Positions 17,698-34,590 of a stretch of 64,000 nt of DNA are shown piece after piece. The first letter of the stretch is position 1. Each line of letters opens with the position of its first letter. This DNA comes from Bullera alba. Taxonomy: Eukaryota; Basidiomycota; Tremellomycetes; Tremellales; Bulleraceae. Under the pieces are notes generated by a model that was given only the letters and a program-made list of their open reading frames with translations, searched no databases and was not told the origin of the DNA. Position numbers and translations under genes: made by a program. Where the stretch lies: contig BCIX01000001.1 in NCBI GenBank assembly GCA_001600095.1, positions 6,411,198 through 6,475,197 of the forward strand, written 5' to 3'.

Positions 17698-19401
17698 TCA
17701 TAAGCTAGCTAGCCACCTTGCCCTGATCTCCTCTGCATGCTCCTTATTCTTGACCGCGCGCTGCTTGCTATCCGCCGCTCTGCGGTCTACCCACTGCTGT
17801 CGATCAGCGAGGTAGTCCTTGAACCTCTGATCCCGCTGCTTGACCAAAGCCTTTTGGTCCTCGTCGATATCATCGGCAGCACCTTGCGGGACGTCATCTT
17901 GGGCGATGGTTGGTCGACGGGGGAGGCGCTTGTCGACGGGTAGCATGGTCAACTTTGGGCCCGGCAGAGTCTGATACCAGTACGCAGTGGTCGACCAGTC
18001 GTCCTTGAGGTGGTTGCCGTGACCGGTCTCCATGGTGACTTTGAGCTTCTTGGCGAATCGCACCGGGTCGGGCAGGTGCCATCGGTAGGATACCTGGGTG
18101 TTAGGCACGTCGTCTTCGTGGATGATGGACCCGGCAAAGCTGAAGGCGTTCTTCTGCATCCCCCATCCTTGCGAGAAATAGTCTTCTCCGCCAGTACCAT
18201 GGTAAGAGGGCGGCCAGACATCGTCGTCGACAAAGATCATGTCGTCACCTTCACCCCACCAAGTCTAGTGGTCAGCTCTATTCTCCCGACTGCGACTTAC
18301 TCCTTGGAAGTGAGAGACTGATTGGTTACAACCGATAAAGTTGCCCTTTCCTTCGGTCTCGAGGATCACATAGTTCCTCTTGCCGTCCAAGTTCTTGACT
18401 TGAGTCTCGAGTGAGTTGGTCTGGGTGCCAGCGGGAGCCCAGCCGTTGGTGGGATTCTCTCGCTTCCACATGGAGTGGAAGTAGAGGGTGTCTTTGGGCA
18501 AGGGGTCCTTGTAGAGCTCATAGTCGATGTAGAAGTACTAGATACTACAGTCAGCACGCGGAGTGACTCGGTGGCCGATCTGACTGACCTGAATGTACGG
18601 GTTTTCACCTTGGTTCTCGATGACAACCCTGGCTCTCTTGTTGAACGGCATAGTGAGATAGCAATTGGCACCGCAGTTGCCTCCAAACTTGTGCAGCTCA
18701 GATGGCTTGACGGAGACTGTGAATGGCAGCGACTCGAAGTTTCCGGGCATGGAGTTGCCTATACCTTGGGTCAGTCTCAAGTAGCTTAGTATCAATAGCC
18801 TGTGCTCACCGATACAGAAGAAGTCGCCAAGGGGGCAGAGTACAGATGGCTCCTCTTGATCGTCCCAGTACATCTTGATCAGGACCTTTCGGTAGCTGGA
18901 CGAGTCAGCGGACCGTCATTATCGGGAACATCTGTGGACTGACTAGTCGGGATCGTTGTCCTCGTAGACCAGACCCAAGGCCGGATGAACCTCCATCATG
19001 GCGACTCCAGTCTTGGAGTAGGGGATGAGGCCTAGACTCTGTCAGTAGTTGCGTGCAGATAGCTCGTCGAGGGGTGTACTTACCGGGACCGAGAATCCTT
19101 CGACAGGCCTGAACAAACCACAGATGGGTAAGAGCACCGGGTCTGGCAGTACTTCAGTATGGGCTCGCAAACATTGAACGATCGACTCACCCCTCAATGT
19201 TGGCGAGCTCTACCGACTCTCCCGGCTTGAGAATGAAAGCATCCTCGTTCTTGCCTACAATTCCAGGACGTGTTAGTGTTGCTCCTCGTGAGAGGACTCC
19301 ATCTCACCTGAGTGGTCCCAGCTAGAGACTCGCGCGGTTCTCGCTTCCTTGCTTTGGGTACAGGCAGCAAGCAGGTCTTGACCTTGAGCACGGATAGACA
19401 T
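17698..19401 (-). CDS. GH172 (DUF2961) glycoside hydrolase, copy 1
   Basis: Glycoside hydrolase of the DUF2961/GH172 family, whose characterised bacterial members act on alpha-D-fructofuranosides (difructose dianhydride I to and from inulobiose) or alpha-D-arabinofuranosides. Start at 19401 (MSIRAQGQDLLAA), about seven exons, and about 450 aa by alignment with copy 2. Blocks seen: VSSWDHSG, PGESVELANIEGPGAL followed by THLWFVQ, YRKVLIKMYWDD, PLGDFFCIG, FYIDYELY, NYVILETEGKGNFIGCN, GEGDDMIFVDDD, GTGGEDYFSQGWGMQ, VSYRWHLPDPVRF and a charged helical C terminus. The Glu residues in GEGDD and GTGGEDYF are the candidate catalytic pair. No signal peptide, so probably cytosolic. Same strand as the sugar porter behind it; a TATATAAG box lies about 92 bp upstream. 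Confidence 0.88.
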
Positions 19402-20679
19402 TCTGGGAGGTGTGCAAGGGTGTGATTGATGGAAATCAGAAGTTGCAGCGTGAGATGTTGCAGTAGAGCACGTCAGGCAGTACTCTGCTGGTCTTATATA
19501 CTGATATTCAAGCTGGAGCTGAACCACTGCTGAGCCTGTCGACACCACTAGTCGGCAATGACCTGCACCGAACGGACCGACCGGACAGCGGACAGTTTAT
19601 TTTCCCTCCGCTAGGGACTCGCCGGCGGAGAGATGCGAGAGTACGAGTGCCGTATGTCGACGAGCGCTTGGCGACATTGGCCGGTGAAGCTCTCATATCC
19701 CGGGGCAATCTGCATGATGATATGAGCCGGCCTTGAGGGATGTCATGTGCGACGTCGTCAGTAGAGACATCCTGGAGGCAGAGGTCAGACGTTCAGAGTC
19801 GGACCCATCGACCAGTGACCACGTGCGTAGCAAACCACCGATCGCGCGATCGCCACACTTGGTCGGAGTCTAGCTGATGTCCGCGACCGACCGCTCCGGC
19901 CCGGCCGGCCCTGACCGTCGACGCGTCGTACACGGCAACGCGTTCGACCTTCGAAGCCCGCCTGGCGTTGGTCTCAGGTCTGGCCAGCTCTGCAGCTCGT
20001 CAATGACTCAGTGATATCTGATACCCGCGTCAATCGCCCAGGATTGTATTGTCGAATTCCTAGCTTCTCTACGCACATCAAGAGACTGATCGAGATACGG
20101 CAACGCGTACTATTGCATATGCGAGTGTCTTCTCCGGTGACCGCCGAAGACATCCTCGATCAAGAGTGAGGGCCCAAACTGTCCACATGCTCCCTCACGT
20201 CACACGCCCTCGCCGGTCCTCTCTGACCGCAAGACTGAAATCGAGGAGGAGAGGAGACTCATCAAGCAGCGATTGACATCTCGCGCAGCAAATCACGGTT
20301 ACAACAATCCTGTCGTTACGTCGACTGCCGAGTCGTTCTTCCATCTCAGTTCTCAGTACATGCTCGCGATGGCTCATGACCCCGCAGCATGCTGTGCAGA
20401 TCCGCCATATGTATGATAGTCGCCGAGGAGGTGCGAAAGGCCTGTCTAGCAGAGGAAGGCGGTGGGGCTCTCAGAGACTCGGTGCAAGCACATAGCCGAG
20501 AGGCGAGAGGAGTCCGGACAGACGCAACTTCACATTCGTGCTTTCACATTGACTGCATACAATGACGGTGTTCGTATAAATCGACTTCTGAGGGACCTTA
20601 TTGCTTCTTTACCCGTATTGCTTTGACACCTCTTCCAAGCCTCCGGTCAGGACATCCTGTCGAGTATCCTCAACGCCGA
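19402..20679. promoter_or_regulatory. 1.3-kb GC-rich spacer upstream of GH172 copy 1
   Basis: No gene I can support. The part near GH172 copy 1 is its promoter. It is rich in CGG/CCG triplets, including CGG-N5-CCG at 19573-19583 and 19897-19907, the kind of site Zn2Cys6 factors bind. The part near 20680 must hold the 3' end of the sugar porter transcript. An open frame without an early ATG runs at about 20140-20418 and is discussed under findings. Confidence 0.45.
19493..19500 (-). promoter_or_regulatory. TATA box of GH172 copy 1
   Basis: TATATAAG on the minus strand, about 92 bp upstream of the ATG at 19401. The same octamer occurs at a similar distance before the sugar porter. Confidence 0.5.
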
Positions 20680-22926
20680 TCAATGGCCGTGAGTCATGAT
20701 CGCTTCGTTCTTCAGGCCTCGAGACTCGGTGCTGGTGGTTGTCGACTTGAACTTCCTAGCTGGGATGTTCATGCTGTAAAGCTCGTCCAGCTCGACATAG
20801 GTTCTACCACAAGTCTGCGTCGTGTCAGCACGGAACATCACACCAAATTATACAGCTCGCTCACCTCAGGGTAGAAGAAGTACACCAGGACGAAGACCGG
20901 GACGACCAGAGCAGCAAAGACGAATGACGCTCTAACGCCTAGATTCGCTTGGTCGGGAGAGATCATGATGGGTACCGTCCAGTAGAAGACCAGGCTGAAA
21001 CCAGGGCATCTATCAGCAAGGTTCCCAAATCGGGTGGTATTGGTCGACTCACAAGCACGATGACTGACAAGCGAAGGCAAAGGCTGAAGTCTGCGCTCGT
21101 AGTCGTGGCGTGGCAGTCTCGCCTCCAGCGATGAAGCCGATCGGGGCTGCTGACCAAGAGTAGGCAACCACCCAGAGCAGGAGCATCGCCAGGGCAGCTT
21201 TGCCGGTACCTTCTCCCGAGAAGGATCCGGTGACTCCGAGGGCTGTGCTGAAACAGAACATCACCGCGCATCCCCTAAATCGGTCAGCATGGTCTTGTGG
21301 AGGTTCAGCCCATGGGTACTCACGACAGCATCATAAATCGACGCCCAATTCTCTCGCAGAAGTACATTGACAGCCCAATCACCGTCAATAGGACGACGTC
21401 GCTGCGTTATCAGCGGCCTTCCAATGTTCAAGCGGGCGGCAGGCGATAAATGTTCACCTACATGACAACCTGGAAAAGAGGATGTCAGCTAGGCTGACTG
21501 GCTCGTAAATGGGACACATTTGACTCACTGTGACGAGGAAGGGGTCCTGGAGGCCGACGATAGAAAAGTAGTATGTCGAGTAGCTGAAGAGCAGAGGAGC
21601 TCCAGCGAGGGGTTGGGAACATACACCGGTGACAGCAGCGATGGTTCGTCGCCTGTTGGACCCTTTAAATATCTGCAAAAACGTGAATCGACCGTTGTTC
21701 TGCGTGAGTTCCTTCTCGGCTTGAATTTGCTCGTGCACCACCCTGTACTCGTGATCCTTGCTGGATCAGCTGTGGTCTACGACAGGCAAACTCACCACGT
21801 CGTAGTCTGGTGCAGTCCCATACAGCTTGATCATACACTTCTTGGCCTTTTCCTCATTGCCCTTGTTGATGTGATAGATGTGCGATTCCGGGACGAAAGG
21901 CAGCATGAGCACGAAAAGCTGGGAATACATCAGCGCTGATTACCCCACACGCTCTAGCTCAGTGTCTGGTTGCTTACCCCGGTGAACACGAACTCTGAGC
22001 CAATCAGTCCTCGCCAAACGGTGATGTCGGTCTGATCATGCGTCAGTGGGGGCTACCGCGATTAATCGTTACCACTGACCTTGACTTGAATCTGGGTAGC
22101 AATGGCTCCAAACAGTTGTCCACCAGCCAGGAAGAGCTGATAGGCTGCCATACCGGTGCCTCGGAGCTGGAAAGGGGCTATCTCGGCGAGGTAAACAATC
22201 AAGGTGGTTTGGGCAACGCCTAGGCCGAGCTTGGTGACGCAGTTGGCGCTGAGGAACCACCTCCAGTTCTGAGCGGTGATTGAAAGGACAGAACCAAGGA
22301 GGAACAATGCGGAAAAGACACACATCGAACCCCTAGAATGTCTGTCAGCACTTATCAAGGACATTTGAGTGTAGCGGATACTCACTTTCTACCGATCGCG
22401 TTTGATATTGGCCCACCTGACAGCTGACCGATGATCTGGACCATGGCAGGGAAGCCTCCGAGAAACGATACAGTCCTGCCGCTGATGGCTGGCTGGCCAT
22501 TGATCGTAGTGTCGGCCATGGTCTTGACGAAGGCGGGCAAGGGTAGCATATTGCCGGGCAGCTGATCACCTGTCAGAGCTGGATCGGGTACGGTCATAAA
22601 CGGCACTCACTTGACCTTGGAACTGGGAGGAAAGGTGTCAGTAGCTATCAACAAACGGATTACAGTGCGCAGCTAATACTCACACCATCGTTTAGACCTC
22701 CCCAACAGGCAATTACACAAAACAGAATCGCCCTCCAGAACGTGCGGATGATCTGTGATCTGTTGAGGCCTGAGGGAAAAGGTCAGGTCTGGCTATGACA
22801 GTAAAATGTCTACTCACTGGCATATTTGGTGTCCAGTGGACCAGGAAGGGCTTCTTCGAGTTTGTGTTCGGCTTGTTCATCTTCGGCTTTATCTTGCGGA
22901 TCAGGGTGGATGTAGGCTTCGGACAT
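20680..22926 (-). CDS. MFS sugar porter (SP family, alpha-glucoside/hexose type)
   Basis: Twelve-helix plasma-membrane sugar:H+ symporter of the SP family, the likely importer of the cluster. Start at 22926 (MSEAYIHPDPQ), stop at 20682-20680, about 540 aa, about ten introns. Family marks: WGGLNDGFQGDQLPGNMLPLP after helix 1, LAEIAPFQLRGTGMAAYQL with IQVK, the mid-protein PES motif (here FVPESHIYHINKG, in place of the usual PESPR), GVCSQPLAGAPLLFSYSTYYF, GRRFMMLSG and the exit block TCGRTYVELDELY. The N-terminal cytosolic tail is acidic. A 7-nt exon (TTCCAAG, 22616-22622) restores the conserved GFQGDQ. Divergent from GH172 copy 2 across 494 bp. Substrate cannot be read from the sequence; neighbours suggest a fructose-containing oligosaccharide. 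Confidence 0.85.
22616..22622 (-). other. 7-nt micro-exon of the sugar porter
   Basis: TTCCAAG lies between a CAG acceptor and a GTCAAG donor. Including it gives the conserved NDG|FQG|DQLPG reading; leaving it out breaks the frame. Confidence 0.65.
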
Positions 22927-23006
22927 CGTGTGCTGGTGCTGACTTGAGTTGTGTGGGTAGATCGCCAAGTGTGGAGCGGTTGGGGTACACCTTGGGCCCC
23001 ATGTGG

Positions 23007-23014
23007 CTTATATA
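23007..23014 (-). promoter_or_regulatory. TATA box of the sugar porter
   Basis: TATATAAG on the minus strand, about 81 bp upstream of the ATG at 22926. Confidence 0.5.
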
Positions 23015-23144
23015 GATCATGGATCGCTGTTCGCTGTTGCTTGAGTGGACATTGTTGAATGACAACATTGAATTGGCGGGGAGGCGGGAGATCGCAGGCT
23101 GGGCAAGCCGAAGTCCTCCGGCGAGCGGCTCTTAAATTTACTGT

Positions 23145-23157
23145 CCGGTGTCACCGG
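23145..23157. promoter_or_regulatory. Perfect inverted repeat, candidate Zn2Cys6 operator
   Basis: CCGGTG-T-CACCGG, six-base arms around one base. It can be read as CGG-N5-CCG. It sits near the middle of the shared promoter of the porter and GH172 copy 2. Binding is inference. Confidence 0.4.
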
Positions 23158-23420
23158 GTACTTCACCGCCGGGTTTCCGGAGTCCGAGATATGGCATGCC
23201 CCAGCAGCGGGATCACGGGGGTATAGGAGGCTTCAGAACCGCTACATCGGATGATAGACTGGTGGCTGTGGTTCTATACGGTGTGAGTCATTGCAGATGA
23301 AGCGAGGAAGAACGATACTATCCGACGAACTGCCCATGATGAGACGGGGAGAGAATTATCGTGAGCTCTCTTCCCCCACACTTGTCTTCTTCTTGAGTAA
23401 CCGAACTCCAATCGCAGAAG

Positions 23421-25113
23421 ATGAACAGATCGGACCTGCTGTCGGCGGCAGCGTACAGAAAGAAGGCAAGGACTGGCAGAGTCTCCAGTTGGGATCACTC
23501 TGGTGAGTAGCTCAGCCGTCCCAGGGTGATGACAGTTAGACTAATTGTAACTGGTGATAGGTCGGAATGAGGACTCCTTCACCGTCCAACCTGGCGAGTC
23601 AATTGTCCTCGCTGAATTAGAAGGGTGAGGCAGCTGCGTCGAGCTATAGGTCCCCCAGGCTGACTAACGAGCGTGCCGTTAGGCCTGGGGCAATCACGCA
23701 TCTGTGGTTCGTGCAAGGTCGTCGCAATGTCCTCGGTCCCGGTGGGTGCTTGAGAAAGTGGGATGAACAGGGCGGATATCTGATGCACGACATACAGGTG
23801 TCGCTCCATATACTGCTACAAACTGCCCTTTCATGGAGACCAACCGAGCTCTGGGATTGTTTGATGAAGAAAACGATGCGGATTTGTGAGTCTGCTCCCT
23901 TTCCCAAGGGTGCTTGGCTAACGAATGCGTGAATAGCTATCGCAAAGCGGTGATCAAGTTCTACTGGGACGGTCAGGATGAACCCTCCGTCTTGGCTCCT
24001 CTTGGTGACTTCTTTTGCATCGGCCAGTCCCTACCCGCAAACTTCCAGTCCTTGCCATTCACCGTTTCTGTTCGGCCGATGGACGAGAAGAAGTACGGGG
24101 GTACGTCAGCGGTCAATTGCTACCTCACCATGCCATTCGGGAAAAGTGCACGAATCGAGGTGGAGAACCAAGGCGAGAATGCCTATATCCAGGTAAGCCC
24201 ACCATTTCTAGCCACGGGAGGATGAGTCTGAGAGCTGATAACCTGCTCAGTACTACTACGTCGACTACGAGCTGTACGCGGAATCATTCACTGACGACGT
24301 ATTGTACTTTCACGCCTCGTGGAACCGTGCCAATCCCACCAACGGCTGGGCACCGAGCTACATGGCCGCCAATTCTCGAGAGATTCAACAACCCCAGAAC
24401 CTGGGTGTTGAGAATAACTACATCATCCTAGAGACCGAAGGTGCCGGGAACTATATCGGTTGCAACCATTCCGTGACCCATTTGCAAAATGTCTGGTGGG
24501 GCGAAGGCGACGACGTGATGTGAGTAAAACCCCCTTTAGGAGACTTTGCCTTGGTTAACCCTCTTCTAGCTTGATCGACGATGACGTTTGGCCTCCATCT
24601 ATGCACGGCACTGGCGGAGAGGACTACTTCTCTCAAGGGTGGGGTATGCAGAAGAACGCTTACCCGTTCGCTGGGTCCATCGTCCACGAGGAGGATGTGC
24701 CCCAAAATCAGGTCTCCTATCGATGGCATCTAGCCGATCCCGTCCGATTCAATACCAAGATCAAGGTCACCATGGAGACTGGGCACGCGAACCATCTTCG
24801 AGACGATTGGGCCACTACGGCGTACTGGTATCAAACGCTTCCAGGACCCAAGCTCAAGCTTCCGCCAGTAGGTTTGCGGATTCCTCGGAAAGCCACGATT
24901 CCGAAGGACGACGTTCAGGAACCCGACCTGAGTCGTCTCACGACCGATCAAGCCGCTCTTGTCCAGTCGAGGAACGACCGGTTCAAGCAATACCTTGCCG
25001 ATAGGCAGATTTGGCTCGATCGACGATCCAAGGACTCGCAGGAACGAGCCTCGAAGAATGTCGAGATTGCCAAGGACCTTAGAGCTAGGTGGCTCGCGTC
25101 ACTGGGTCATTAA
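23421..25113 (+). CDS. GH172 (DUF2961) glycoside hydrolase, copy 2
   Basis: Paralogue of the gene at 17.7-19.4 kb, same family and expected activity. Seven exons: 23421-23502, 23561-23624, 23683-23741, 23798-23885, 23937-24192, 24251-24519 and 24570-25113, giving 1,362 nt and 453 aa. The true start is MNRSDLLSAAAYRKK at 23421. Longer upstream frames are in the wrong phase, and only this start continues into KARTGRVSSWDHSG. Motifs: GPGAITHLWFVQ (about 49-60), YRKAVIKFYWDGQDEPSV, PLGDFFCIG, GEGDDVILIDDD with E268, HGTGGEDYFSQGWGMQ with E290, VSYRWHLADPVRF, and a basic helical tail. The spacing of E268 and E290 fits the two catalytic glutamates of the founding enzyme as I recall them. No signal peptide. 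Converges on the regulator with a 62-bp gap. Confidence 0.9.
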
Positions 25114-25175
25114 GTCATATAGCAGTGCTGTCATGCATGAACGTCGTCCATCTTGGTACTTTGTCAAAGCGATTG

Positions 25176-28157
25176 CTACTGATCCTTGCCGAAAAGACGG
25201 AAGAAATCGTCTGTCCATCCCGCAGTAGAGTCGAGAAAGTTGAGCGTATTGACGGCTGGGACTTTCAGTCAGCTTAAGATAGGTGGGGCATGTAGGGCGG
25301 CTCGTACTCACCATCGAGCGTCATGTTCGCTTGAGCCTGGTCGGTAGGGGAAACCCAATCACTGGCGAAGAGACCATCGATACTGGCAAAAGCCGGCTGC
25401 AGCTCTCCATCGTTTGCACTTGCTGATCCTCGTCGGCTCTGCCACTGTCCTGGTAACTTCCCAGTCTCCTTTTGGTGGTGGGTCAAGCATAGTCCGATGA
25501 CCCTGCGACGGATGTACACTTGCAGATGACGTCCGTATACCGCTGCTGTGCCGAGGCGGTGTGGAGGAGTGGTGCCCACTTGCTCGAGGAGGTTTGACAG
25601 CTGAGCTAGCAAGCCGAGCAGTCTCGCCTGTGCCGCTAGGCTGGCTGTCGAGGGTGCTAGCTAAGAAGTTGTCAGTATATCGTTTGCTCGCCTGGCAAGT
25701 CAAAGTAGCTCACTCGGATCGCCAGCAAGACCTCAAAGGAGAGCATTGGGCCCATCGTATTCGGAAATCCCTGTTCGAGCTTCAGATACCGCGCCAGAGG
25801 GGCATGTCAAGCGGCACTCACCCATAACGCTCTGCTCTTCTGCAGGTGCTCGCAAACGAACGCACAGCTCGAAAAGGCTGCAGAGTAGCAATCTCGTGTA
25901 AGAGCTTCGACCGAGGCACCTCTCGAGGTGAGTGCCTGCAGAGCGTAGCTCAGAGACCACAATCGCGTGTGCCGATACATGAGCTCAAAGTAGGCTGAAT
26001 CTCCTGGAAGTGACATGAGCGACGGGCATCATCACGATGGTCTCCGTGGACGTACCGCAGTGTTGTGCCCAGTACCCATGCCAGGGGCCCAGTTCCTCGT
26101 CAATCTTTCCTGCTACCCAGGCTGTATCGTACTCAGAACGTAGCTGAATCTCGGATCTCAATGTTTCCGAAACTCGAACCTAAAGAGTAAAGTCTAGGTA
26201 AGGCTCAAGCTTCTGGCGGAAGAGCAAAAGCAACTCACCGAGACTCTTCGCAAGACCACACATGCCGTTGTGCACTTATCCTCGGGCAGAGCCAGATGGT
26301 GGAAGCACCAGCTATCGTTCCTGATTAGATCGTCCTGGGTGAATCGGGTAGCTTTGCCAAAGGCCAGGCTGAGACTGGAATCCCATAGGAACAGGTGGAG
26401 CCAAAGTCGCTGTCGGTTCCGTACAATACGCTCTTCTGAATCTGCATCCCCTCGAGTGATGCCTTCTAGACAAGGTCTGAAAGAGGCATACTGCATCAAA
26501 GTTCAGCGAGGAGTCGACAGCTAGCATCAAAGACGTACGCTTGCTTGCTCATTTCGCCAATTTGGGGCGATGACCCTGGCAAGTCCCAGCTCGACGGCCA
26601 TGTTGATTGCAAACTTAGTTTCATGCCACAGCTTCTCCTCCTGTAGCGGGACGCTGGAAGGCAGCCAAGAGATCCAAATTAGGAAAGCCTGTACGATCTG
26701 ATCATGCCATCCAATCAGTTAGACTGAACCGTACAGAGGTATAATGACACCCACCTCAACAGATGCAAATTTCCGACGTGATATTTGCTCTGATAGCCTG
26801 TGCGCGTGAATTCGTAGTCGTTTTGTAGCCTCTTCGGCACCGGGAGTGAGGGAGGCACCATGTGCGCAGATGGCTGTAAGGAGAAAAGCTGAACGCCCCT
26901 GCACGACTGGGATAATGCCGTGGTCAGCCACTTTGGATCAAATTTCGAGCCGTAGAGAGGTACTTACAGGCGGTCGTGTGCAAATGAGGGTCGAGGACCG
27001 GCAGCATGGGGTGGAATCTCGAGAAGAAAGTTGCAAAGAATGCTTTCACCTCTCGAGGGGTGACCAGCGCTAGACTCAGGGGACAGTTCTCTGGTCCTAG
27101 ATCCCTCTTGACTTCTCTGCAAGGTGGATTGAAGAAGTGGCGATCTTCCCAATCGAGCCTTCTTCTCGCATTGTCGGCCAATAACGACGCTAAGCCCTCG
27201 GCGAGATACGTTTCGTCCAGTGATGAGGGCAGAGTACGAGGCTCAGATGGCCCTTCGCTGATTATGGCGTGGAGAGTCTCAGTCAGACTGTAGTGGGGCG
27301 GTAAGGACGAGTCGAAGGACCCGTGTTCCTCATAGGCGGGTATGTCGATATCGGCTGCGGTCCGATCCGACGCACTAATCTCCTCTGCTGCCTCTGCGAG
27401 GAGCTTGACTGGGTTGGAGAGACCTCCATCGTTGTAGACGGAAGACTGCTTTCCAGAATGCTGAGATTCGATGGATCTTGCTGTCAGCGGCAGGTCGGGG
27501 TGGTATGAATTGGCGAAAAGATCAGATCCGTGCCCGATTGACGGACTGAGACCATCCATTGGCTGGTTGTCCTGACCCATCCCGCCTGCAGCAAACTCAT
27601 AAGAGCGCGGAGGGGACAGCAGGACGGAATCCAGAGGTTGTGCAGATCGATGTTCGTTGTGGTGGTGCCAGGACTCTGATCGAAGGCTCGCCTGAAGCTG
27701 TCCTCGTCCACTGGAGCTTTCGCTGGTGTCTGGTGTACCGGACCGTTTCCGTTTGGCGCTTTGGGACATGGGCATACTGCCTGGTTGTTCACGTTCGATG
27801 AGTTTTCGAGCCCTCTCTAGCGGTGTCTGCTGGCTGGGCAGAATAAGCCTCCTTCTCGCCGGATGTCGAGATCGACTCACTTCTTGCTGCCCCTGGGACG
27901 ACCGGTCCTGATGCTCGACGGTCTTGTACAGGTTTCCTGCCGCTTCTCGCATCTTAGGCACTTCTCGCTAGACGCTGGAGTCTCGCACTTTGCTTTGACG
28001 ACTCTGCAGGGGACACTGGATGCCGATGTCAGCATAGTGGCACGCTGATCAGCTTGGAGAGGGTCATGACATACCAGGCAATCAGCCTTGGACCCGCCGG
28101 CGGGCGTCCTGAAGCCTGCTGTGAGGGTTGATCGGAAAACGGCGAGACGGTCGACAT
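25176..28157 (-). CDS. Zn2Cys6 fungal transcription factor
   Basis: Nuclear DNA-binding regulator, probably of the surrounding sugar cluster. Start at 28157 (MSTVSPFSDQPSQQ). The binuclear cluster spans the first intron and is complete: C-V-P-C-x6-C-x8-C-x2-C-x6-C, using the acceptor just before TGTCCCC (the next AG downstream would give a stop). It is followed by a basic linker GRPRGSKN and a Ser/Pro-rich region. The fungal_trans middle domain follows (VKAFFATFFSRFHPMLPVLDP), then helical exons (RWLWLHLFLWDSSLSLAFGK type). The C terminus is GWTDDFFRLFGKDQ, a common end of this class. Total about 850 aa. It is divergent from GH32 over 356 bp and convergent with GH172 copy 2, so it lies inside the cluster. 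Target genes are inference. Confidence 0.88.
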
Positions 28158-28513
28158 TGGTGAAATGGTGTAGTTGTCAATGCCGGTCGATCAGAATGGA
28201 CTGATGCAGGCTCAACTATCCGGGAGGTATGACATTGGAAGAGCTGGCCATGATCGACTCGGGCCCATTGTCCAGCAGGTCCAGCTCGGGGCAGAACACA
28301 AGGTCACACCATACGGAGCGTATTTAAACCCGCCGGGGGGCGCAGTGGCTCCGAAGTTCTGCCGTCACGTTATTGGATCTTGGCCTTGATAGTGGCCAGC
28401 CAAGGAGTTCAACAGATAAATAGCTTGGGATATAGGGCAGACATGCTGTCCCAAGTCATGCGCACCCCTTTGCGCTCAATACACTCTACGACGGGTGCTC
28501 AGACGATATCGAG
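28158..28513. promoter_or_regulatory. Divergent promoter, Zn2Cys6 regulator / GH32
   Basis: 356 bp. TATTTAAA at 28321-28328 is followed directly by CCCGCCGGGG (28329-28338), about 190 bp before the GH32 start. Two upstream ATGs (28443 and 28458) share a frame that is not the GH32 frame and overlap its start. Confidence 0.45.
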
Positions 28514-30411
28514 ATGGTCGGCAGCGGAAGACCCGATTTCCACTTTGTCGCGCCCAAGGGCTGTGAGTGGTTTTCATTATACGTCGAGTAGCCATTCTGC
28601 TAACTCTTGCGCTGAATAGGGCTGAACGATCCGTGTGCGCCTGGATATGACGAGAAGACTGGCCTCTACCATCTATTCTATCAATGGAACCCAAAATCAC
28701 ACAAATGGGACGACATCTCCTGGGGTCACGCTACTAGTCGAGACTTGATCTCCTGGGAGTATTCTTCGCAAGAGGTGAGCGGTTCCGGGGAGATATAGCA
28801 CTGTTCATCTGGCTGACTGACCCTTTTCAGCCGGCTTTTACCCCTTCTGAGTCGTATGACAAGCTTGGTATCTTCACCGGGTGTTTCTATCCCACCGGTC
28901 CGGAAGGCCAGGCTGATCAGCTCTCCATTTTCTACACGAATGTCGATTACCTACCCATCAAATGGGACCTGCCCTACAAACGAGGCTGTGAAGGACTGGC
29001 GATGGCCACTTCTGTTGATGGGGGCAAGACATGTAGGTGCCTCGTTACAATGGACTGTGGTCATATGCTCACACCATTCGCAGGGACAAAGTACGCGAAC
29101 AACCCTCTACTCTCCGAAGAGCCGCCAGAGATCCACGTCACAGGGTTTCGGGACCCATTTCTCGCACCATGGCCGGCTATGGACAAGCTTCGAGGTACCC
29201 CAGGAAAGCTATACGGCCTTATCTCCGGCGGTATCCACGACCTCGGCCCTAGAACCTTCCTATACGAAGTCGACCCAAAAGACCTCACCAAGTGGACCTA
29301 TCTGCACCCGTTGACTACAGACGTGCCAGTCGGCTATCTCCCAAGTGTCAAGTGGGCTGGAGACTTCGGAGCAAATTGGGAGTGTACCAACTTTGTCAGC
29401 CTGCGTGCCCACGACGGAACCCAGCGCGAGCTGGTTTTTACCGGAACCGAAGGAGGGAAGCATCGACCTTGGCGGGATGAACACTATCGCAAGCAGTCGC
29501 AAGAGGCACCTCGACGGGATCCTAGTTACGCCAATTGGTTCATCGGCAATCTCGCAGCCGCTGGTGCTACATCGGAAGTGCGAATGGATATTGGTCCGAC
29601 TGGAATGATCGACTGGGGCGTCTTCTACGCCTCTAGCTCGTTCCCAGCTCCAGATGGTAGGACTGTGGTGTGGGGCTGGATGCAGGAGCCAGATGTCTCG
29701 GACGGCCTGTTGAAGGAGCGAGGATGGACTGGGTGTATGGGTATACCAAGAGAGATCTACTTGCAGAAGATCTCCGGGGTGATAGGTGCCTTCTCTTCGC
29801 CTCTCGATACCATCGCGTCGTTTGGACTGGAACCTCAGACTGGTGCTTCCTCGGACGCTCACACGGTCTACACCCTCGGCATCAGGCCTATCATAGAGAC
29901 GGACCAGCTCCGCAAAGACATCGTGTATGATCACCCCGCCGGTCCTATCAACTCGACCGTGAGGTGCTTCAAAACGCTCCCCGCCGCCTGCGAAATCCGG
30001 TGCATCCTCGAGATTAGCAAGGCTACGAAAGACGTCTCGTTCATCCTGCGACACAACGACGACCTCTCGATCAAAACGTCTATCGTCTTCGATCCCCATG
30101 CCGAGACATTGCAAGTCATCAGAGAACTTTCGACTGACCGCACCGACATCAGCACAGCCCCGGAGATCGGATCTCATACCCTTCTACGCCTTCAGAGTGG
30201 GGACGGCACAGAAGAACGGTTTGAGCCGTTGAGGTTGACGATATACCTCGATCACGATGTCATTGAGCTGTTTGCCAACGATCGGTTCGCCCTTTCAACT
30301 AGGGTCTACACCCCACCTCAGTACACTGGCTTCTCGATTGCAGCCAAAGGCGATGTTGAGGTGCAGGATCTGAAGGTGTGGGAAATGGGCAGCATGGGTT
30401 TGGTGCGTTGA
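28514..30411 (+). CDS. GH32 beta-fructofuranosidase, intracellular type
   Basis: Hydrolyses terminal beta-D-fructofuranosyl bonds (sucrose, inulin-type oligosaccharides, inulobiose). Exons 28514-28562, 28620-28774, 28831-29032 and 29084-30411, 1,734 nt and 577 aa. All three catalytic blocks of the five-bladed propeller are present: GWLNDP (nucleophile Asp, rebuilt across intron 1), FRDPF (transition-state Asp) and WECTNF (acid/base Glu). FTGCFYPTG and [13 protein letters not shown] also fit. A C-terminal beta-sandwich ends with [18 protein letters not shown]. The start [14 protein letters not shown] leads straight into the domain and no signal peptide is visible; an in-frame TAG upstream excludes a longer N terminus unless a further exon exists. 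Together with GH172 and the porter it suggests uptake followed by cytosolic hydrolysis. Confidence 0.93.
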
Positions 30412-30931: not shown

Positions 30932-32896
30932 ATGCGTGCTGATCTGCGAGAAAGTCCAGTGGTGAACACCCTTGACCGCGCCATCGGACAGCAAGACTCC
31001 AGTGGGACCGGAGCACTGGAGGACGTACATGAGTGTAAAGGTGATGGGTTGGAACTTGAATTACACGACCCGACAGCAGTGCCTGCGCCGACAATGTCCA
31101 TGGTCAGGATGTACTTCCTGGCCTTTTCGATGATGTTGACGTGGTTTCTTGGCGTTAGTGAAGACGCGTCTTTCTCCACTGACACGTCTTAGACCGCTAG
31201 TAATGTTGCCGTGACCATCTTGATTCCAAACATGGCGAGAGACTTGGAGGTCACCGAGTTGGAAGTACAATGGGTAAGTCAGCGGTGCGTGCGAAGCTGA
31301 CTTTAGGTCTCGTCTGCATATGGACTGGCATACGGCTGGTAAGTCATTGTTACTATAAGATGTCTAGAGCTAAGTCGTCCAGTGGAATGCTGATCTCGGG
31401 GCGTATGGCCGATCTCTTCGGACGGAAACTTCTCTATATGCTCGGTCTGTCCATCTTCGTCGTGTTCTCCATAATATCTGGAGTCCTAAGAGTGAGTCGG
31501 ACTTTCGAAGAGCAGTCATTGACGTGACAGCAAAGGATGGCGCTCTGCGTTGTAAGAGCATTTGCTGGACTAGGTCTAGCTATTGCCGGCCCCGCTGGAT
31601 ACGGTATCATCGGGACGACCATCCGGCAAGAGCCCCATCGAACGTATGTATTTGCCATCTTCGGGCTGGGTGGACCAATCGGCGCTTCCGCTGGTTCACT
31701 ACTTGGTGGAGCGGTCGCTGGAATCAATCGGTGAGCCCGAACCTGAAAGACAAAGCTGAGCGCGACAGCCGCGGGTGGAGCTATTTGTTCTTCCTTGTTG
31801 CAGGAATGGCTCTGATACCCATCGTCATTGGCTATTTCACCATACCAAAGGATGTCAAGCGACTACCGGGTTCCGGCGTTGACCGTCGAGTCGATTGGAT
31901 CGGTGGCTTCCTGGTGACTGCCGGGCTTAGCCTCTTCATCTTCAGTCTCGTGCAATCTGGGGTCGTCCCGCGAGGTTGGTCCGAACCATGTGAGTAGACG
32001 CTGAGTGCAACATCGTGACTCCTGTCGTACTGACACCAACAGATGTCCCTGCGGTATTGGTCCTATCGATAGTGCTGTTGGTGGTATTCATGTTGTGGGA
32101 ATATCACCTCGAGAACCGGACGACCTACCCACCCGTCATCAAACCTTCCATCTTTTCTAGGTATCACTACAAGCCTCTCGGCCTTGTGATCTGCGGATTC
32201 GGTATATCAGTGAGCGTACAAGGTTGGAGCTACAACACCACAATCTGGTATCAGAACTTGAAAGGGTACTCGGCCTTGAAGAACGCGATCCAGCTTCTGC
32301 CAGCAAACATTGGAGGACTGATAGCAGCCGTACGTACAACGTACGATCCTTCCGTAATTGCGCTGACAGTTGTAGGCCTCAGTGATGTATACGGTACCCA
32401 GGGTGCGAGCCCCCACGCTGTTGATAGTCGGCGGCGTTCTAGGAGGGTGAGTTGCAAGTACTATAGAGGGCTGACTGTTCAGTGTCGCTTGCATGATGTA
32501 CGCTGTCCAGCCGCAAAACACATTGTACTGGGCCTGCGAGTTCATCGCGTGTCTTTTACTGCCCTACGGGATAGATTAGTAAGTCATTGACTCTGCAGTT
32601 TATGAGCTGATCCTCTCAGCGTCGCAGGAGTAGGGAACATCTGCATGTCCAACTTGGTGGAGCAGGACGAGCAGTCTGTGGCTGGAGCGCTGTTCCAGAC
32701 TTCGTTTCAAATAGGCGGAGCGCTCGGCATCAGTCTGTCAAGTCTGATAGTCACCGAGCGGGCCAAAGTCACCGGAAGCCTGCTCAGCGCGCTGCGCGGT
32801 GGCTTCTGGTTCAACGCCGCTCTGGCGTGGATCGGTGAGGAGCGCGCACAACACAATGCGCTGGGCAACGCTGACCTCTCGCAGTACCCGTCGTGA
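30932..32896 (+). CDS. MFS transporter, DHA2-like (14-TMS drug/ion:H+ antiporter type)
   Basis: Plasma-membrane transporter of the DHA2 branch of the major facilitator superfamily. Start ATG at 30932 (MRADLRESPVV), stop at 32896. An acidic N-terminal tail is followed by TASNVAVTILIPNMARDLEV, EVQWVSSAYGLAYGCGMLISG, the MFS A-motif GRMADLFGRK, RAFAGLGLAIAGPAGYG, a loop with VDWIGGFLVTAGLSLFIF, and the late DHA2 region VEQDEQSVAGALFQTSFQIG with GALGISLSS. Members export drugs or move ammonium, borate or amino acids, so the substrate is open. It may mark the cluster edge or simply be a neighbour: it is co-oriented with GH32 and has a CGG-N5-CCG site upstream. Some internal splice sites (32.33-32.45 kb) are uncertain. 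Confidence 0.82.
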
Positions 32897-33204
32897 CGTG
32901 GGTTTCGTTTCGTCACGTCAGATTGGCAAAGGACGTGACACAGAGTCGGTAGCCTTCGACGACTCCTGAAACGTGTTTACGCACGTCAAACAACATTGTA
33001 TGTATATCATTACAAGCATCTGCCACATATGCTCGGCGCGAACACCTTGAGTATCACGGGGTGTTGTGTGAAGGGATTGTAGGTGTGCATCATCGATGTC
33101 GTCCTTTCAGGAAACCGCAACCGTCATCTGTCTGGAATGCTATAAGACGAGGTAGACAACTCTTCCTACACCAGTCCATCCTTCATTCACATTGTCACGC
33201 CACC
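32897..33204. promoter_or_regulatory. Spacer upstream of the 33.2-kb orphan gene
   Basis: 308 bp. It contains a TATA box TATAAG at 33141-33146 and a pyrimidine-rich leader ending in a good start context (CACCATGA). No other gene. Confidence 0.4.
33141..33146 (+). promoter_or_regulatory. TATA box of the 33.2-kb orphan gene
   Basis: TATAAG about 60 bp upstream of the ATG at 33205, which is itself in a strong context. Confidence 0.4.
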
Positions 33205-34590
33205 ATGAGCCAACAGCAAAGTTCTTATAGCGGTCCCCCTGGGCTCCTCACCCGAGTCACCTCCGATCACGCATGGCAGCGAGAAGGCCTTGTCCTGGAC
33301 GAGGAAGACAAAACAGCCATCATCAGAGTCGGCACCTCGGTCTGCTTTCCGGATGGAAGTATGCAGCCCCTCCCACCTGATCACGCACGTAACCTCGTGG
33401 CTGAAGCATACAACAATGCCATGAGCGACATTGGAAAGCCAAGCGATCATACAGGTCCTGGCTCCCTCGAGTATCATTATCCCAAAGCAAATCAAGCGAT
33501 CGTCAACACCGCTGACAACTACGTTTCAAAGCTGACGACGAAAACCCTGTTCGACCCCGTGAGAGAAGCGGTGCCAACACTGAAGAAGGCAGCCCCAGAG
33601 TTGGAAGAGTACTTCTGGGCGATTGATACCCTCAGTGGTTGTCATCAGTTCAGAATGGACGACCACTCGAGATCTGGGGATGAAGGTGTCATAACATACG
33701 ATGACCAGAAGCTCAAGATGAGTTATCCCATGTTGACCGCCCGGGACTCGGCAATTGTCGTCTCGCCCACGGCCCAGTTCCGCAAGACAGCTGGTGATGT
33801 TGGTAACAAAGACCTCTCCGCGGACCAGCTGGAGGGTTTCACTCAGCATGTACAGTCATGGTGGGGGAAACAGCTCGAAAGTGTCGCTGGCCGAGTGAAA
33901 ATCATGAAATGGTTGGAGACTGGCAGCCTTGACGACCTGGCCAAGCTGGCATCAGAGGCGAAGAAGAGCGCGGATGAGTGGGCTGGTCAATACACTTGGT
34001 AGGACATCCTGTACAACCCGCCAGCGGAGACTGCTCAGCCGTTCAATCTCAGCTTGGAGGACTACGTCCAGCCGACCTTGGATGAGCTGGTGAGCTATCT
34101 GCGTCCTGTAAGTGACAATGCGGGGAAGGATCCCACAAGGATGCTCGCAGCTGCAACAAATGAGCTACTGGACAAGTTCGGAGCCGAGTGTCCACCTGGA
34201 TCGACTATACCGAGTTGGTTCTGCACCCTTGAGACAGCCATCGGGCATATGTCAAATGGGCTGCGAATGTCTTTGAGGGCCTTCGAGAAGGATTACTGCC
34301 AGAACCGGTATCTATCAAATCCACCACGCGAGAGATCCGTTCCTTGTGTGACGACGGATTTCGATTTTGCGAACCATGCTGGAGGAGCTCGGGGCGGCCA
34401 GCAAAGCTGGGCCGATCAAGGAAAACCAGCCCGTGCAACCCACTTGAAGGTGTATGCGTTAACACTGGCAGTGGCGGGCGATAGCGGAGACTCCAAGCCT
34501 CTGACTCCTCTCAAGTCAATACACTATGTCAAGATCAGGAAGCCGAGATCCTGCAATGATGATGCTTCGCAGAACAGTTCCATCGAGTGA
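33205..34590 (+). CDS. Hypothetical orphan protein with an in-frame TAG (or 54-nt intron)
   Basis: I do not recognise this protein. One frame runs from ATG 33205 to TGA 34590, interrupted only by a TAG at 34000-34002. If 33999-34052 (GTAGGA...CTCAG, 54 nt) is an intron, the product is 443 aa. If it is retained, translation stops after 265 aa. Without the stop the interval would read protein-like (DILYNPPAETAQPFNLS), so a recent nonsense mutation is the third possibility. The protein is soluble, without signal peptide or membrane helices, with helical stretches (DQLEGFTQHVQSWWGKQLES; SDNAGKDPTRMLAAATNELL) and five Cys in the last third. Few or no introns and a close TATA box set it apart from the core genes nearby. 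Confidence 0.6.

What the first reader, a model, noticed from the sequence alone, without database searches (positions are those of the whole stretch)
17698..30411. Candidate fungal alpha/beta-fructoside utilisation cluster (2x GH172 + SP porter + Zn2Cys6 + GH32)
Five adjacent genes bring together two GH172 enzymes, a sugar porter, an in-cluster Zn2Cys6 factor and a GH32 with a complete WLNDP/RDP/EC triad. None of the enzymes shows a signal peptide. In bacteria GH172 converts difructose dianhydride I to inulobiose, which a beta-fructofuranosidase then splits to fructose. The same logic here would be: import, ring opening by GH172, fructose release by GH32. I know of no described fungal cluster of this kind. 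Alternatives are alpha-arabinofuranosides or another fructose-containing oligosaccharide.
Basis: partly seen in the sequence, partly recalled or inferred. Interest (0 to 1): 0.88.

Follow-up and report, generated by a model that had tools for sequence, protein, structure and literature searches.

The report
Fungal gene cluster for difructose sugars
A basidiomycete yeast carries five side-by-side genes that look like a kit for importing, opening and digesting an unusual ring-shaped double-fructose sugar, a job so far laid out for bacteria.

Summary
Window 17698-30411 holds five intact, intron-rich genes: GH172A, a sugar porter, GH172B, a Zn2Cys6 regulator and a GH32 without a visible signal peptide. 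Both GH172s group with the difructose dianhydride I (DFA I) synthase/hydrolase alphaFFase1 (51% and 47% identity). GH172A keeps 8 of 8 published active-site residues, including the two that mutagenesis ties to difructose substrates; GH172B keeps 7 (Lys to Arg). Linkage is not unique to this genome: of 6 named fungal genomes in both hit lists, GH172 and GH32 lie within 8 locus tags in 5 and share a contig in the sixth; GH172 and porter lie within 3 tags in 2 of 2. In bacteria 70 of 79 related loci hold a GH32 within 10 kb. The full five-gene set is shown only here. Best reading: import of a DFA I-type sugar, ring opening by GH172 to inulobiose, fructose release by GH32. Substrate, activity and co-regulation are not shown. 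Fungal DFA I synthase activity is old knowledge; the open papers searched showed no fungal cluster.

The parts
17698..19401 (-). GH172A gene, 8 exons, 454 aa, alphaFFase1-clade enzyme with all 8 published active-site residues
   Evidence: Gene model; DUF2961 275.4 bits; 7v1v match E 4.5e-155; residues E86, K148, Y188, W268, E271, E293, D294, W300
19402..20679 (.). Intergenic region: GH172A upstream region and porter 3' side; holds one copy of CTGTCCGCTGTC at 19595 (minus)
   Evidence: the shared word is not beyond my rough chance estimate
20680..22926 (-). Sugar porter (SP family MFS) gene, 13 exons, 537 aa
   Evidence: Gene model, end corrected; Sugar_tr 230.7 bits; closest named relatives C. 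gattii VGV D1P53_005500 (79%) and K. bestiolae I302_100987 (76%)
22927..23420 (.). Divergent intergenic region between porter and GH172B starts (494 bp), presumed shared promoter
   Evidence: Gene starts; length and motif scan
23421..25113 (+). GH172B gene, 7 exons, 453 aa; alphaFFase1 clade, +1-subsite Lys147 replaced by Arg144
   Evidence: Gene model; DUF2961 272 bits; residues; tree
25176..28157 (-). Zn2Cys6-type transcription factor gene, 11 exons, 812 aa
   Evidence: Gene model (first of two variants), stop checked; Fungal_trans 42.8 bits, Zn_clus 17.3 bits (below cut-off); cysteines
28158..28513 (.). Divergent intergenic region between regulator and GH32 starts (356 bp), presumed shared promoter
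   Evidence: Gene starts; length
28514..30411 (+). GH32 gene, 4 exons, 577 aa, no signal peptide visible, WLNDPC / FRDPF / WECTNF motifs
   Evidence: Gene model; Pfam; motif positions; closest named relative CspHIS471_0400020 (52%)

Best explanation
This is a catabolic gene cluster for DFA I-type difructose sugars in a Tremellales-like basidiomycete yeast. The porter imports the cyclic difructose (or inulobiose) intact. GH172A, and probably GH172B, open the alpha-fructofuranosyl bond in the cytosol to give inulobiose. The GH32 then splits inulobiose into two fructoses; because the GH172 equilibrium strongly favours DFA I (89:11 in the bacterial enzyme), the GH32 would pull the reaction forward. 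The Zn2Cys6 factor is the likely local regulator. Shown here: gene content, family and clade, conserved active-site residues, recurrent GH172-GH32 and GH172-porter linkage. Inferred: substrate, direction, import, localisation, regulation.
For: GH172A's closest solved structure is alphaFFase1 7v1v (520 bits), against 183, 154 and 103 bits for 4kq7, 8ah3 and 8ic8 (GH172B was not searched there, but is 47.3% identical to alphaFFase1 and groups with A). GH172A keeps E85 and K147, whose mutation leaves under 5% activity on inulobiose but 94-100% on pNP-alpha-D-Araf. GH32 lies within 10 kb of 70 of 79 bacterial loci, directly downstream on the same strand in 59, against about 0.02 expected per 20 kb from 123 GH32 matches (pieces and the linked genes included) in 121 Mb of 20 such genomes. 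Fungal GH172/GH32 tags: PV11_04163/04162, IFR05_007124/007126, LTR84_002790/002788, CspHIS471_0400050/0400020, IAT40_005856/005864, plus one pair known only to share a 1.47 Mb contig. GH172/porter tags: D1P53_005499/005500, I302_100990/100987. Five of the six linked fungal GH32s also start without an apparent signal peptide; the sixth is truncated. The other GH32 found in the genome has a secretion-like start.
Against: No assay, expression or growth data. Porter substrate cannot be read from sequence. Of 7 named genomes in both the porter and GH32 lists, only Microdochium bolleyi has both on one contig. Neither C. gattii VGV nor K. bestiolae appears in the top-120 GH32 list, so the full set is not shown in a second genome. 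PMC8812541 states that eukaryotic DUF2961 homologs have a unique domain organisation and likely different functions, and PMC8605356 calls its 16 fungal homologs a relatively distant clade. No convincing shared promoter site. GH172B has Arg for Lys147. GH172A depends on splicing of a 36-nt intron, the shortest of 38, just before its catalytic WWGE motif.
Confidence: 0.7

Rival explanations
1. The cluster works in the making direction: it imports inulobiose, and GH172 condenses it to DFA I as a store that competitors cannot easily use, with GH32 releasing fructose later.
For: The bacterial enzyme's equilibrium is 89:11 in favour of DFA I and its kcat/Km is 0.813 for inulobiose against 0.0378 for DFA I (PMC8605356 passages). 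The A. fumigatus enzyme was described as forming DFA I.
Against: A GH32 in the same cell compartment would remove inulobiose and drain the store. B. dentium grows on DFA I as sole carbon source according to unpublished work cited in PMC8605356.
Confidence: 0.12
2. The substrate is an alpha-D-arabinofuranoside, such as D-arabinan fragments of actinobacterial cell walls, and the GH32 neighbour is incidental or has another role.
For: Other GH172 members are exo-alpha-D-arabinofuranosidases (PMC10115798 passages; PMC10509167 search listing only), and alphaFFase1 cleaves pNP-alpha-D-Araf.
Against: GH172A matches alphaFFase1 far better than 8ah3 and 8ic8. The difructose-specific +1 residues are kept in GH172A. 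The GH32 neighbour recurs across fungi and bacteria.
Confidence: 0.08
3. It is mainly a sucrose or fructo-oligosaccharide import cluster: porter plus intracellular invertase, with the GH172 pair an accessory for side products.
For: Fungal group 8 GH32 are intracellular putative invertases (PMC2728104 passages; PMC3880211 passages), and one porter relative is annotated as a general alpha-glucoside symporter.
Against: Two old GH172 paralogs are retained beside the porter, and a GH172 sits next to the porter in C. gattii VGV, for which no GH32 was listed.
Confidence: 0.1

Closest known systems
Bifidobacterium dentium alphaFFase1 locus (BBDE_2039 GH32, BBDE_2040 GH172, BBDE_2041-2043 ABC transporter), PMC8605356
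   Same: Same GH172 clade, same active-site residues in GH172A, GH172 and GH32 both without signal peptide, transporter next door, same proposed chemistry
   Different: One GH172 and an ABC transporter are described there, against two GH172s, an SP porter and a Zn2Cys6 factor here; the fungal GH32 is in a separate clade from the bacterial linked GH32s sampled (the B. dentium GH32 itself was not compared)
Aspergillus fumigatus difructose-anhydride synthase (EC 3.2.1.134), proposed gene AFUA_5G00510, PMC8605356
   Same: Fungal enzyme activity of the expected type; the paper places the proposed gene in a fungal clade of alphaFFase1 homologs
   Different: The gene assignment is a suggestion in that paper; no surrounding cluster is described in what I read; that sequence was not compared here
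Streptomyces loci with two alphaFFase1-clade GH172 genes (L014, L015, L016, L018; L017 second copy partial)
   Same: Two GH172 genes within 10 kb; 4 of these 5 also hold a GH32 in the fetched stretch
   Different: The two second copies placed in a tree (L014, L016) are distant paralogs in another branch, so the doubling looks independent; full-length copies keep Lys147
GH172 exo-alpha-D-arabinofuranosidases of Dysgonomonas gadei and relatives, PMC10115798
   Same: Same Pfam family DUF2961 and paired catalytic glutamates
   Different: Much lower similarity to GH172A; found in D-arabinan loci; no GH32 partner noted in the passages I read
Aspergillus niger InuR regulon (sucA, inuE, sugar transporters), PMC10142829
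   Same: Fungal sucrose and inulin use under a dedicated regulator with sugar transporters (Zn2Cys6 class recalled)
   Different: Its GH32 enzymes are secreted (recalled); no GH172 mentioned in the passages I read

Membership tests
GH172, alphaFFase1 (DFA I synthase/hydrolase) clade | DUF2961 domain over its curated cut-off | tested here: met
   275.4 and 272 bits against 27
GH172, alphaFFase1 (DFA I synthase/hydrolase) clade | Sequence closest to alphaFFase1 among solved GH172 structures | tested here: met
   GH172A: 7v1v E 4.5e-155 over residues 12-448, next best 4kq7 E 1e-52. GH172B was not searched against structures; identity to alphaFFase1 47.3%, A 50.8%, and B groups with A
GH172, alphaFFase1 (DFA I synthase/hydrolase) clade | Catalytic Glu270/Glu291 and Tyr187, Trp267, Asp292, Trp298 | tested here: met
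   All present in A and B; each kept in 118 to 120 of 120 listed relatives
GH172, alphaFFase1 (DFA I synthase/hydrolase) clade | +1 subsite Glu85 and Lys147 needed for difructose substrates | tested here: inconclusive
   A has both (met); B has Glu82 but Arg144 in place of Lys. Position 147 is K in 98, R in 18, V or N in 4 of 120 relatives; effect of Arg unknown
GH172, alphaFFase1 (DFA I synthase/hydrolase) clade | Activity on DFA I and inulobiose | not testable with these tools
   Needs purified enzyme
GH172 D-arabinanase branch | Closest to exo-alpha-D-arabinofuranosidases 8ah3 / 8ic8 | tested here: not met
   GH172A: 153.5 and 103.2 bits against 520.1 for alphaFFase1
Fungal group 8 intracellular GH32 (SucB-like) | No signal peptide; NDPCA instead of NDPNG at the first motif | tested here: met
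   N-terminus [11 protein letters not shown] and WLNDPCAP, by inspection. Group 8 is predicted intracellular (PMC2728104 passages); the CA-for-NG change is reported for one group 8 member, CmINV, which itself is secreted (PMC3880211 passages)
Fungal group 8 intracellular GH32 (SucB-like) | Tree placement with a characterised group 8 member | tested here: inconclusive
   Groups with other fungal GH32s incl. an A. niger protein, which I could not confirm to be SucB; PMC1865650 not held
SP-family sugar porter | Sugar_tr domain and full MFS length | tested here: met
   230.7 bits over residues 54-506; matches GLUT and STP structures
SP-family sugar porter | Transport of a difructose | not testable with these tools
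   Needs uptake assay
Zn2Cys6 transcription factor | Six-cysteine cluster plus Fungal_trans domain | tested here: met
   Cysteines 28, 31, 38, 47, 50, 57; Fungal_trans 42.8 bits; Zn_clus 17.3 bits, under its cut-off of 21

The most novel reading that the evidence does not exclude
The two retained GH172 paralogs do different jobs: GH172A handles DFA I, while GH172B, with Arg in place of the difructose-binding Lys, is tuned to another alpha-fructoside, or the two build mixed assemblies, since in alphaFFase1 the active site is completed by the neighbouring subunit. The fungus would then use a family of cyclic fructose sugars closed to many other yeasts.
Probability: 0.3. Interest if true: 0.75.

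Novelty: new variant of a known kind. Interest (0 to 1): 0.62.

Why it matters
DFA-forming enzymes are known from bacteria such as Arthrobacter and Streptomyces acting on inulin, and a compound tentatively identified as DFA I was reported from Jerusalem artichoke in 1933 (PMC6245366 passages). The same passages describe a process in which bakers' yeast ferments away fructose and short oligofructosides during DFA production, which suggests (inference) that this yeast leaves the DFA. A fungus able to eat DFA I would have a carbon source few rivals use. The cluster offers candidates for the fungal DFA I synthase/hydrolase, whose gene PMC8605356 says had not been identified in the old fungal work, and a candidate difructose transporter. 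It also shows the GH172-GH32 partnership in fungi with a GH32 lineage different from the bacterial ones sampled, circumstantial evidence that the two enzymes work in series.

Tried and rejected
Common promoter motif for the regulator: CGG/CCG dyads and shared words in three promoter regions gave nothing clear. The word CTGTCCG[CG]TGTC occurs in the 64 kb only upstream of GH172A and GH172B, but I picked it after looking, and a hand estimate (not a call) gives about 2.5 chance 14-mer matches of that quality between those two regions; not used as evidence.

Co-transfer of GH172 and GH32 from a bacterium: not supported. In one search the window GH32 and 23 database GH32s (all taken from the window's own hit list, 3 unnamed) form one clade (100/100) apart from 20 bacterial GH32s of 18 loci, 17 of them labelled by me as the GH172-linked ones. 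The deeper branching is weak (59/63), and one linked bacterial GH32 (Verrucomicrobiota, L047) lies unresolved beside the fungal clade, so an old shared origin is not excluded. A bacterial origin of the fungal GH172 alone fits the trees (fungi beside Streptomyces, 91/93), but they are unrooted, so direction is not shown.

Recent tandem duplication of GH172A and B: rejected. A groups with C. gattii and B with K. bestiolae on supported branches.

NCBIfam gave no family for either GH172. Fungal synteny on DNA was not tested: no fungal genome collection is offered, so locus tags and contig lengths served as a proxy. Papers on Cryptococcus and Tremellales growth on inulin (passages only) report variable growth between species and inulin growth in two strains without a predicted GH32; they do not bear on DFA.
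Full report
What is there. The window lies in a 19.4 Mb, 7-contig genome. Between 17698 and 30411 I modelled five intact genes with 38 introns of 36-61 bases: GH172A (minus), a sugar porter (minus), GH172B (plus), a Zn2Cys6 regulator (minus) and a GH32 (plus). Two gene pairs are divergent: porter/GH172B (494 bp apart) and regulator/GH32 (356 bp apart). Pfam supports each call, with one soft spot: the Zn_clus domain scores under its cut-off, though all six cysteines are in place. The genome search found DUF2961 only in these two genes and GH32 here and in one other gene, which starts with a secretion-signal-like stretch. The cluster GH32 and both GH172s show no such stretch (by eye).

Which organism. 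By protein similarity it is a Tremellales-like basidiomycete yeast (inference): GH172A is 91% identical to a Cryptococcus gattii VGV protein, the porter 79% to its neighbour, and GH172B 72-74% to a Kwoniella bestiolae protein. The species was not identified.

GH172 identity. The closest solved structure to GH172A is alphaFFase1 of Bifidobacterium dentium (7v1v; 520 bits), well ahead of 4kq7 (183), 8ah3 (154) and 8ic8 (103). 8ic8 is named an exo-alpha-D-arabinofuranosidase; 8ah3 is labelled 'DG02479 GH127' and I take it, from its number, to be DgGH172c of PMC10115798. GH172B was not searched against structures; it is 65% identical to A and 47% to alphaFFase1. PMC8605356 (sections 8 and 10 part 1, and passages) gives the active-site residues. 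GH172A has all 8; GH172B has 7, with Arg144 for Lys147. The +1 residues Glu85 and Lys147 matter for the substrate question: E85A, E85Q and K147A keep 94-100% activity on pNP-alpha-D-Araf but fall to 0.5-4.8% on inulobiose. Among the 120 relatives listed (of 3133 hits), position 85 is Glu in 101 (9 Asp, 7 gaps, 3 other) and position 147 is Lys in 98, Arg in 18, other in 4. The Arg form is thus recurrent; its effect is unknown.

Linkage in other fungi. The protein database gives no genomic context, but locus tags and contig lengths do. Six named fungal genomes appear in both the GH172 list and the GH32 list, each the best 120 hits; species seen only as different strains in the two lists (Elasticomyces elasticus, Fusarium oxysporum) were set aside. 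In all six a GH172 and a GH32 share a contig length. Five have close tags: Exophiala sideris PV11_04163/04162, Cadophora M221 IFR05_007124/007126, Exophiala bonariae LTR84_002790/002788, Cutaneotrichosporon HIS471 0400050/0400020 (tags appear to step by ten), Kwoniella CBS 6097 IAT40_005856/005864. For Cadophora MPI-SDFR-AT-0126 only the shared 1.47 Mb contig is known. HIS471 and E. bonariae also have a second, unlinked GH32 in the list. Porter and GH172 occur together in two named genomes, both linked: C. gattii VGV D1P53_005500/005499 and K. bestiolae I302_100987/100990. Against this, of seven named genomes in both the porter and GH32 lists only Microdochium bolleyi has both on one contig; Saitozyma JCM 24511, Mariannaea PMI_226, two Dactylonectria species, Microdochium nivale and Fusarium lateritium do not. 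So GH172-GH32 and GH172-porter linkages each recur, but the full five-gene set is shown only in this window, and the regulator's linkage was not tested elsewhere.

Linkage in bacteria. One scan of bacterial and archaeal genomes with an alignment of 11 relatives gave 347 relatives, of which the best 80 (79 loci) were kept. With a profile built from 120 GH32 hits, 70 of 79 loci have a GH32 in the fetched flanks of up to 10 kb; in 59 it ends 0.9-1.9 kb past the GH172 on the same strand, in 11 it lies elsewhere or is shorter. The 9 without are L017, L020, L021, L022, L036, L042, L066, L072 and L083. In 20 of these genomes, chosen by me and not at random, there are 123 GH32 matches (pieces counted, the linked genes included) in about 121 Mb, or about 0.02 expected per 20 kb. 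In 75 of the 79 loci a GH172 carries all eight alphaFFase1 residues.

Evolution. In one search the 20 fungal GH172s form one clade (100/100) beside Streptomyces (91/93). The paralogs appear to have split before the sampled Tremellomycetes diverged: A with Cutaneotrichosporon, Kwoniella CBS 6097 and C. gattii; B with K. bestiolae. Five Streptomyces loci also hold two GH172s; the two second copies I placed are distant paralogs. The GH32 tree puts the window GH32 and its 23 sampled relatives together, away from the bacterial linked GH32s, which fall into several lineages (deep branching weak). The same GH172 clade is thus found beside different GH32 lineages, which argues that the two activities belong in series.

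How it most likely works. Import of DFA I or a like sugar by the porter (inferred), ring opening to inulobiose by GH172 (inferred from clade and residues), release of two fructoses by GH32 (inferred), under the in-cluster factor (inferred). The published equilibrium of 89:11 toward DFA I makes a pulling GH32 sensible. Rivals are in their field: synthesis of DFA I as a store, arabinofuranosides, and plain sucrose import.

Prior art. PMC8605356 already proposes the bacterial GH172-GH32-ABC logic, notes 16 fungal homologs in a relatively distant clade, and proposes AFUA_5G00510 as the A. fumigatus enzyme. PMC8812541 (passages) reports that 77.5% of the eukaryotic DUF2961 proteins it found are fungal, reports DUF2961 combined with GH32 in some proteins, and also says that eukaryotic homologs likely have different functions. 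My searches for GH172, DUF2961 and difructose with fungal terms listed no paper that I could recognise as describing a fungal GH172 cluster; most listed papers were not opened, and most subscription papers are not in the library.

Verdict. A well-formed fungal counterpart of a known bacterial module, with new parts (SP porter, Zn2Cys6 factor, doubled GH172). Interesting and directly testable, not categorically new.

Noticed in passing
window 18265-18300 (minus strand): GH172A intron 7 is 36 nt, the shortest of 38 modelled, with only 7 nt from the likely branch A to the AG; the catalytic WWGE motif follows directly, and the next AG downstream would bring a stop (read by eye). Splicing here decides whether the enzyme can be active.
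   Followed up: partly
P0005 (C. gattii VGV GH172): The annotated protein lacks TWWGE at the matching place, so it misses Trp267 and Glu270; perhaps an annotation or splice-site issue.
   Followed up: no
L014, L015, L016, L017, L018: Streptomyces loci with two alphaFFase1-clade GH172 genes (L017's second is partial), with all readable active-site residues kept.
   Followed up: partly
G000:C7:93439-94245 (L005): The other GH32 found in the genome, with a secretion-signal-like N-terminus and a Ser/Ala/Thr-rich stretch: possibly the secreted invertase or inulinase.
   Followed up: partly
window about 31200-32900: A further MFS transporter-like stretch (weak MFS_1 and TRI12 hits, both below cut-off, on two pieces) just downstream of the GH32; not modelled, and it may or may not belong to the cluster.
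   Followed up: no
window 33205-34002 (plus): Open frame of 265 aa with no Pfam hit and coding-like codon usage.
   Followed up: no
window 23141 (+) and 19595 (-): CTGTCCG[CG]TGTC occurs in the window only upstream of GH172B and GH172A; found after the fact and not beyond a rough chance estimate.
   Followed up: partly
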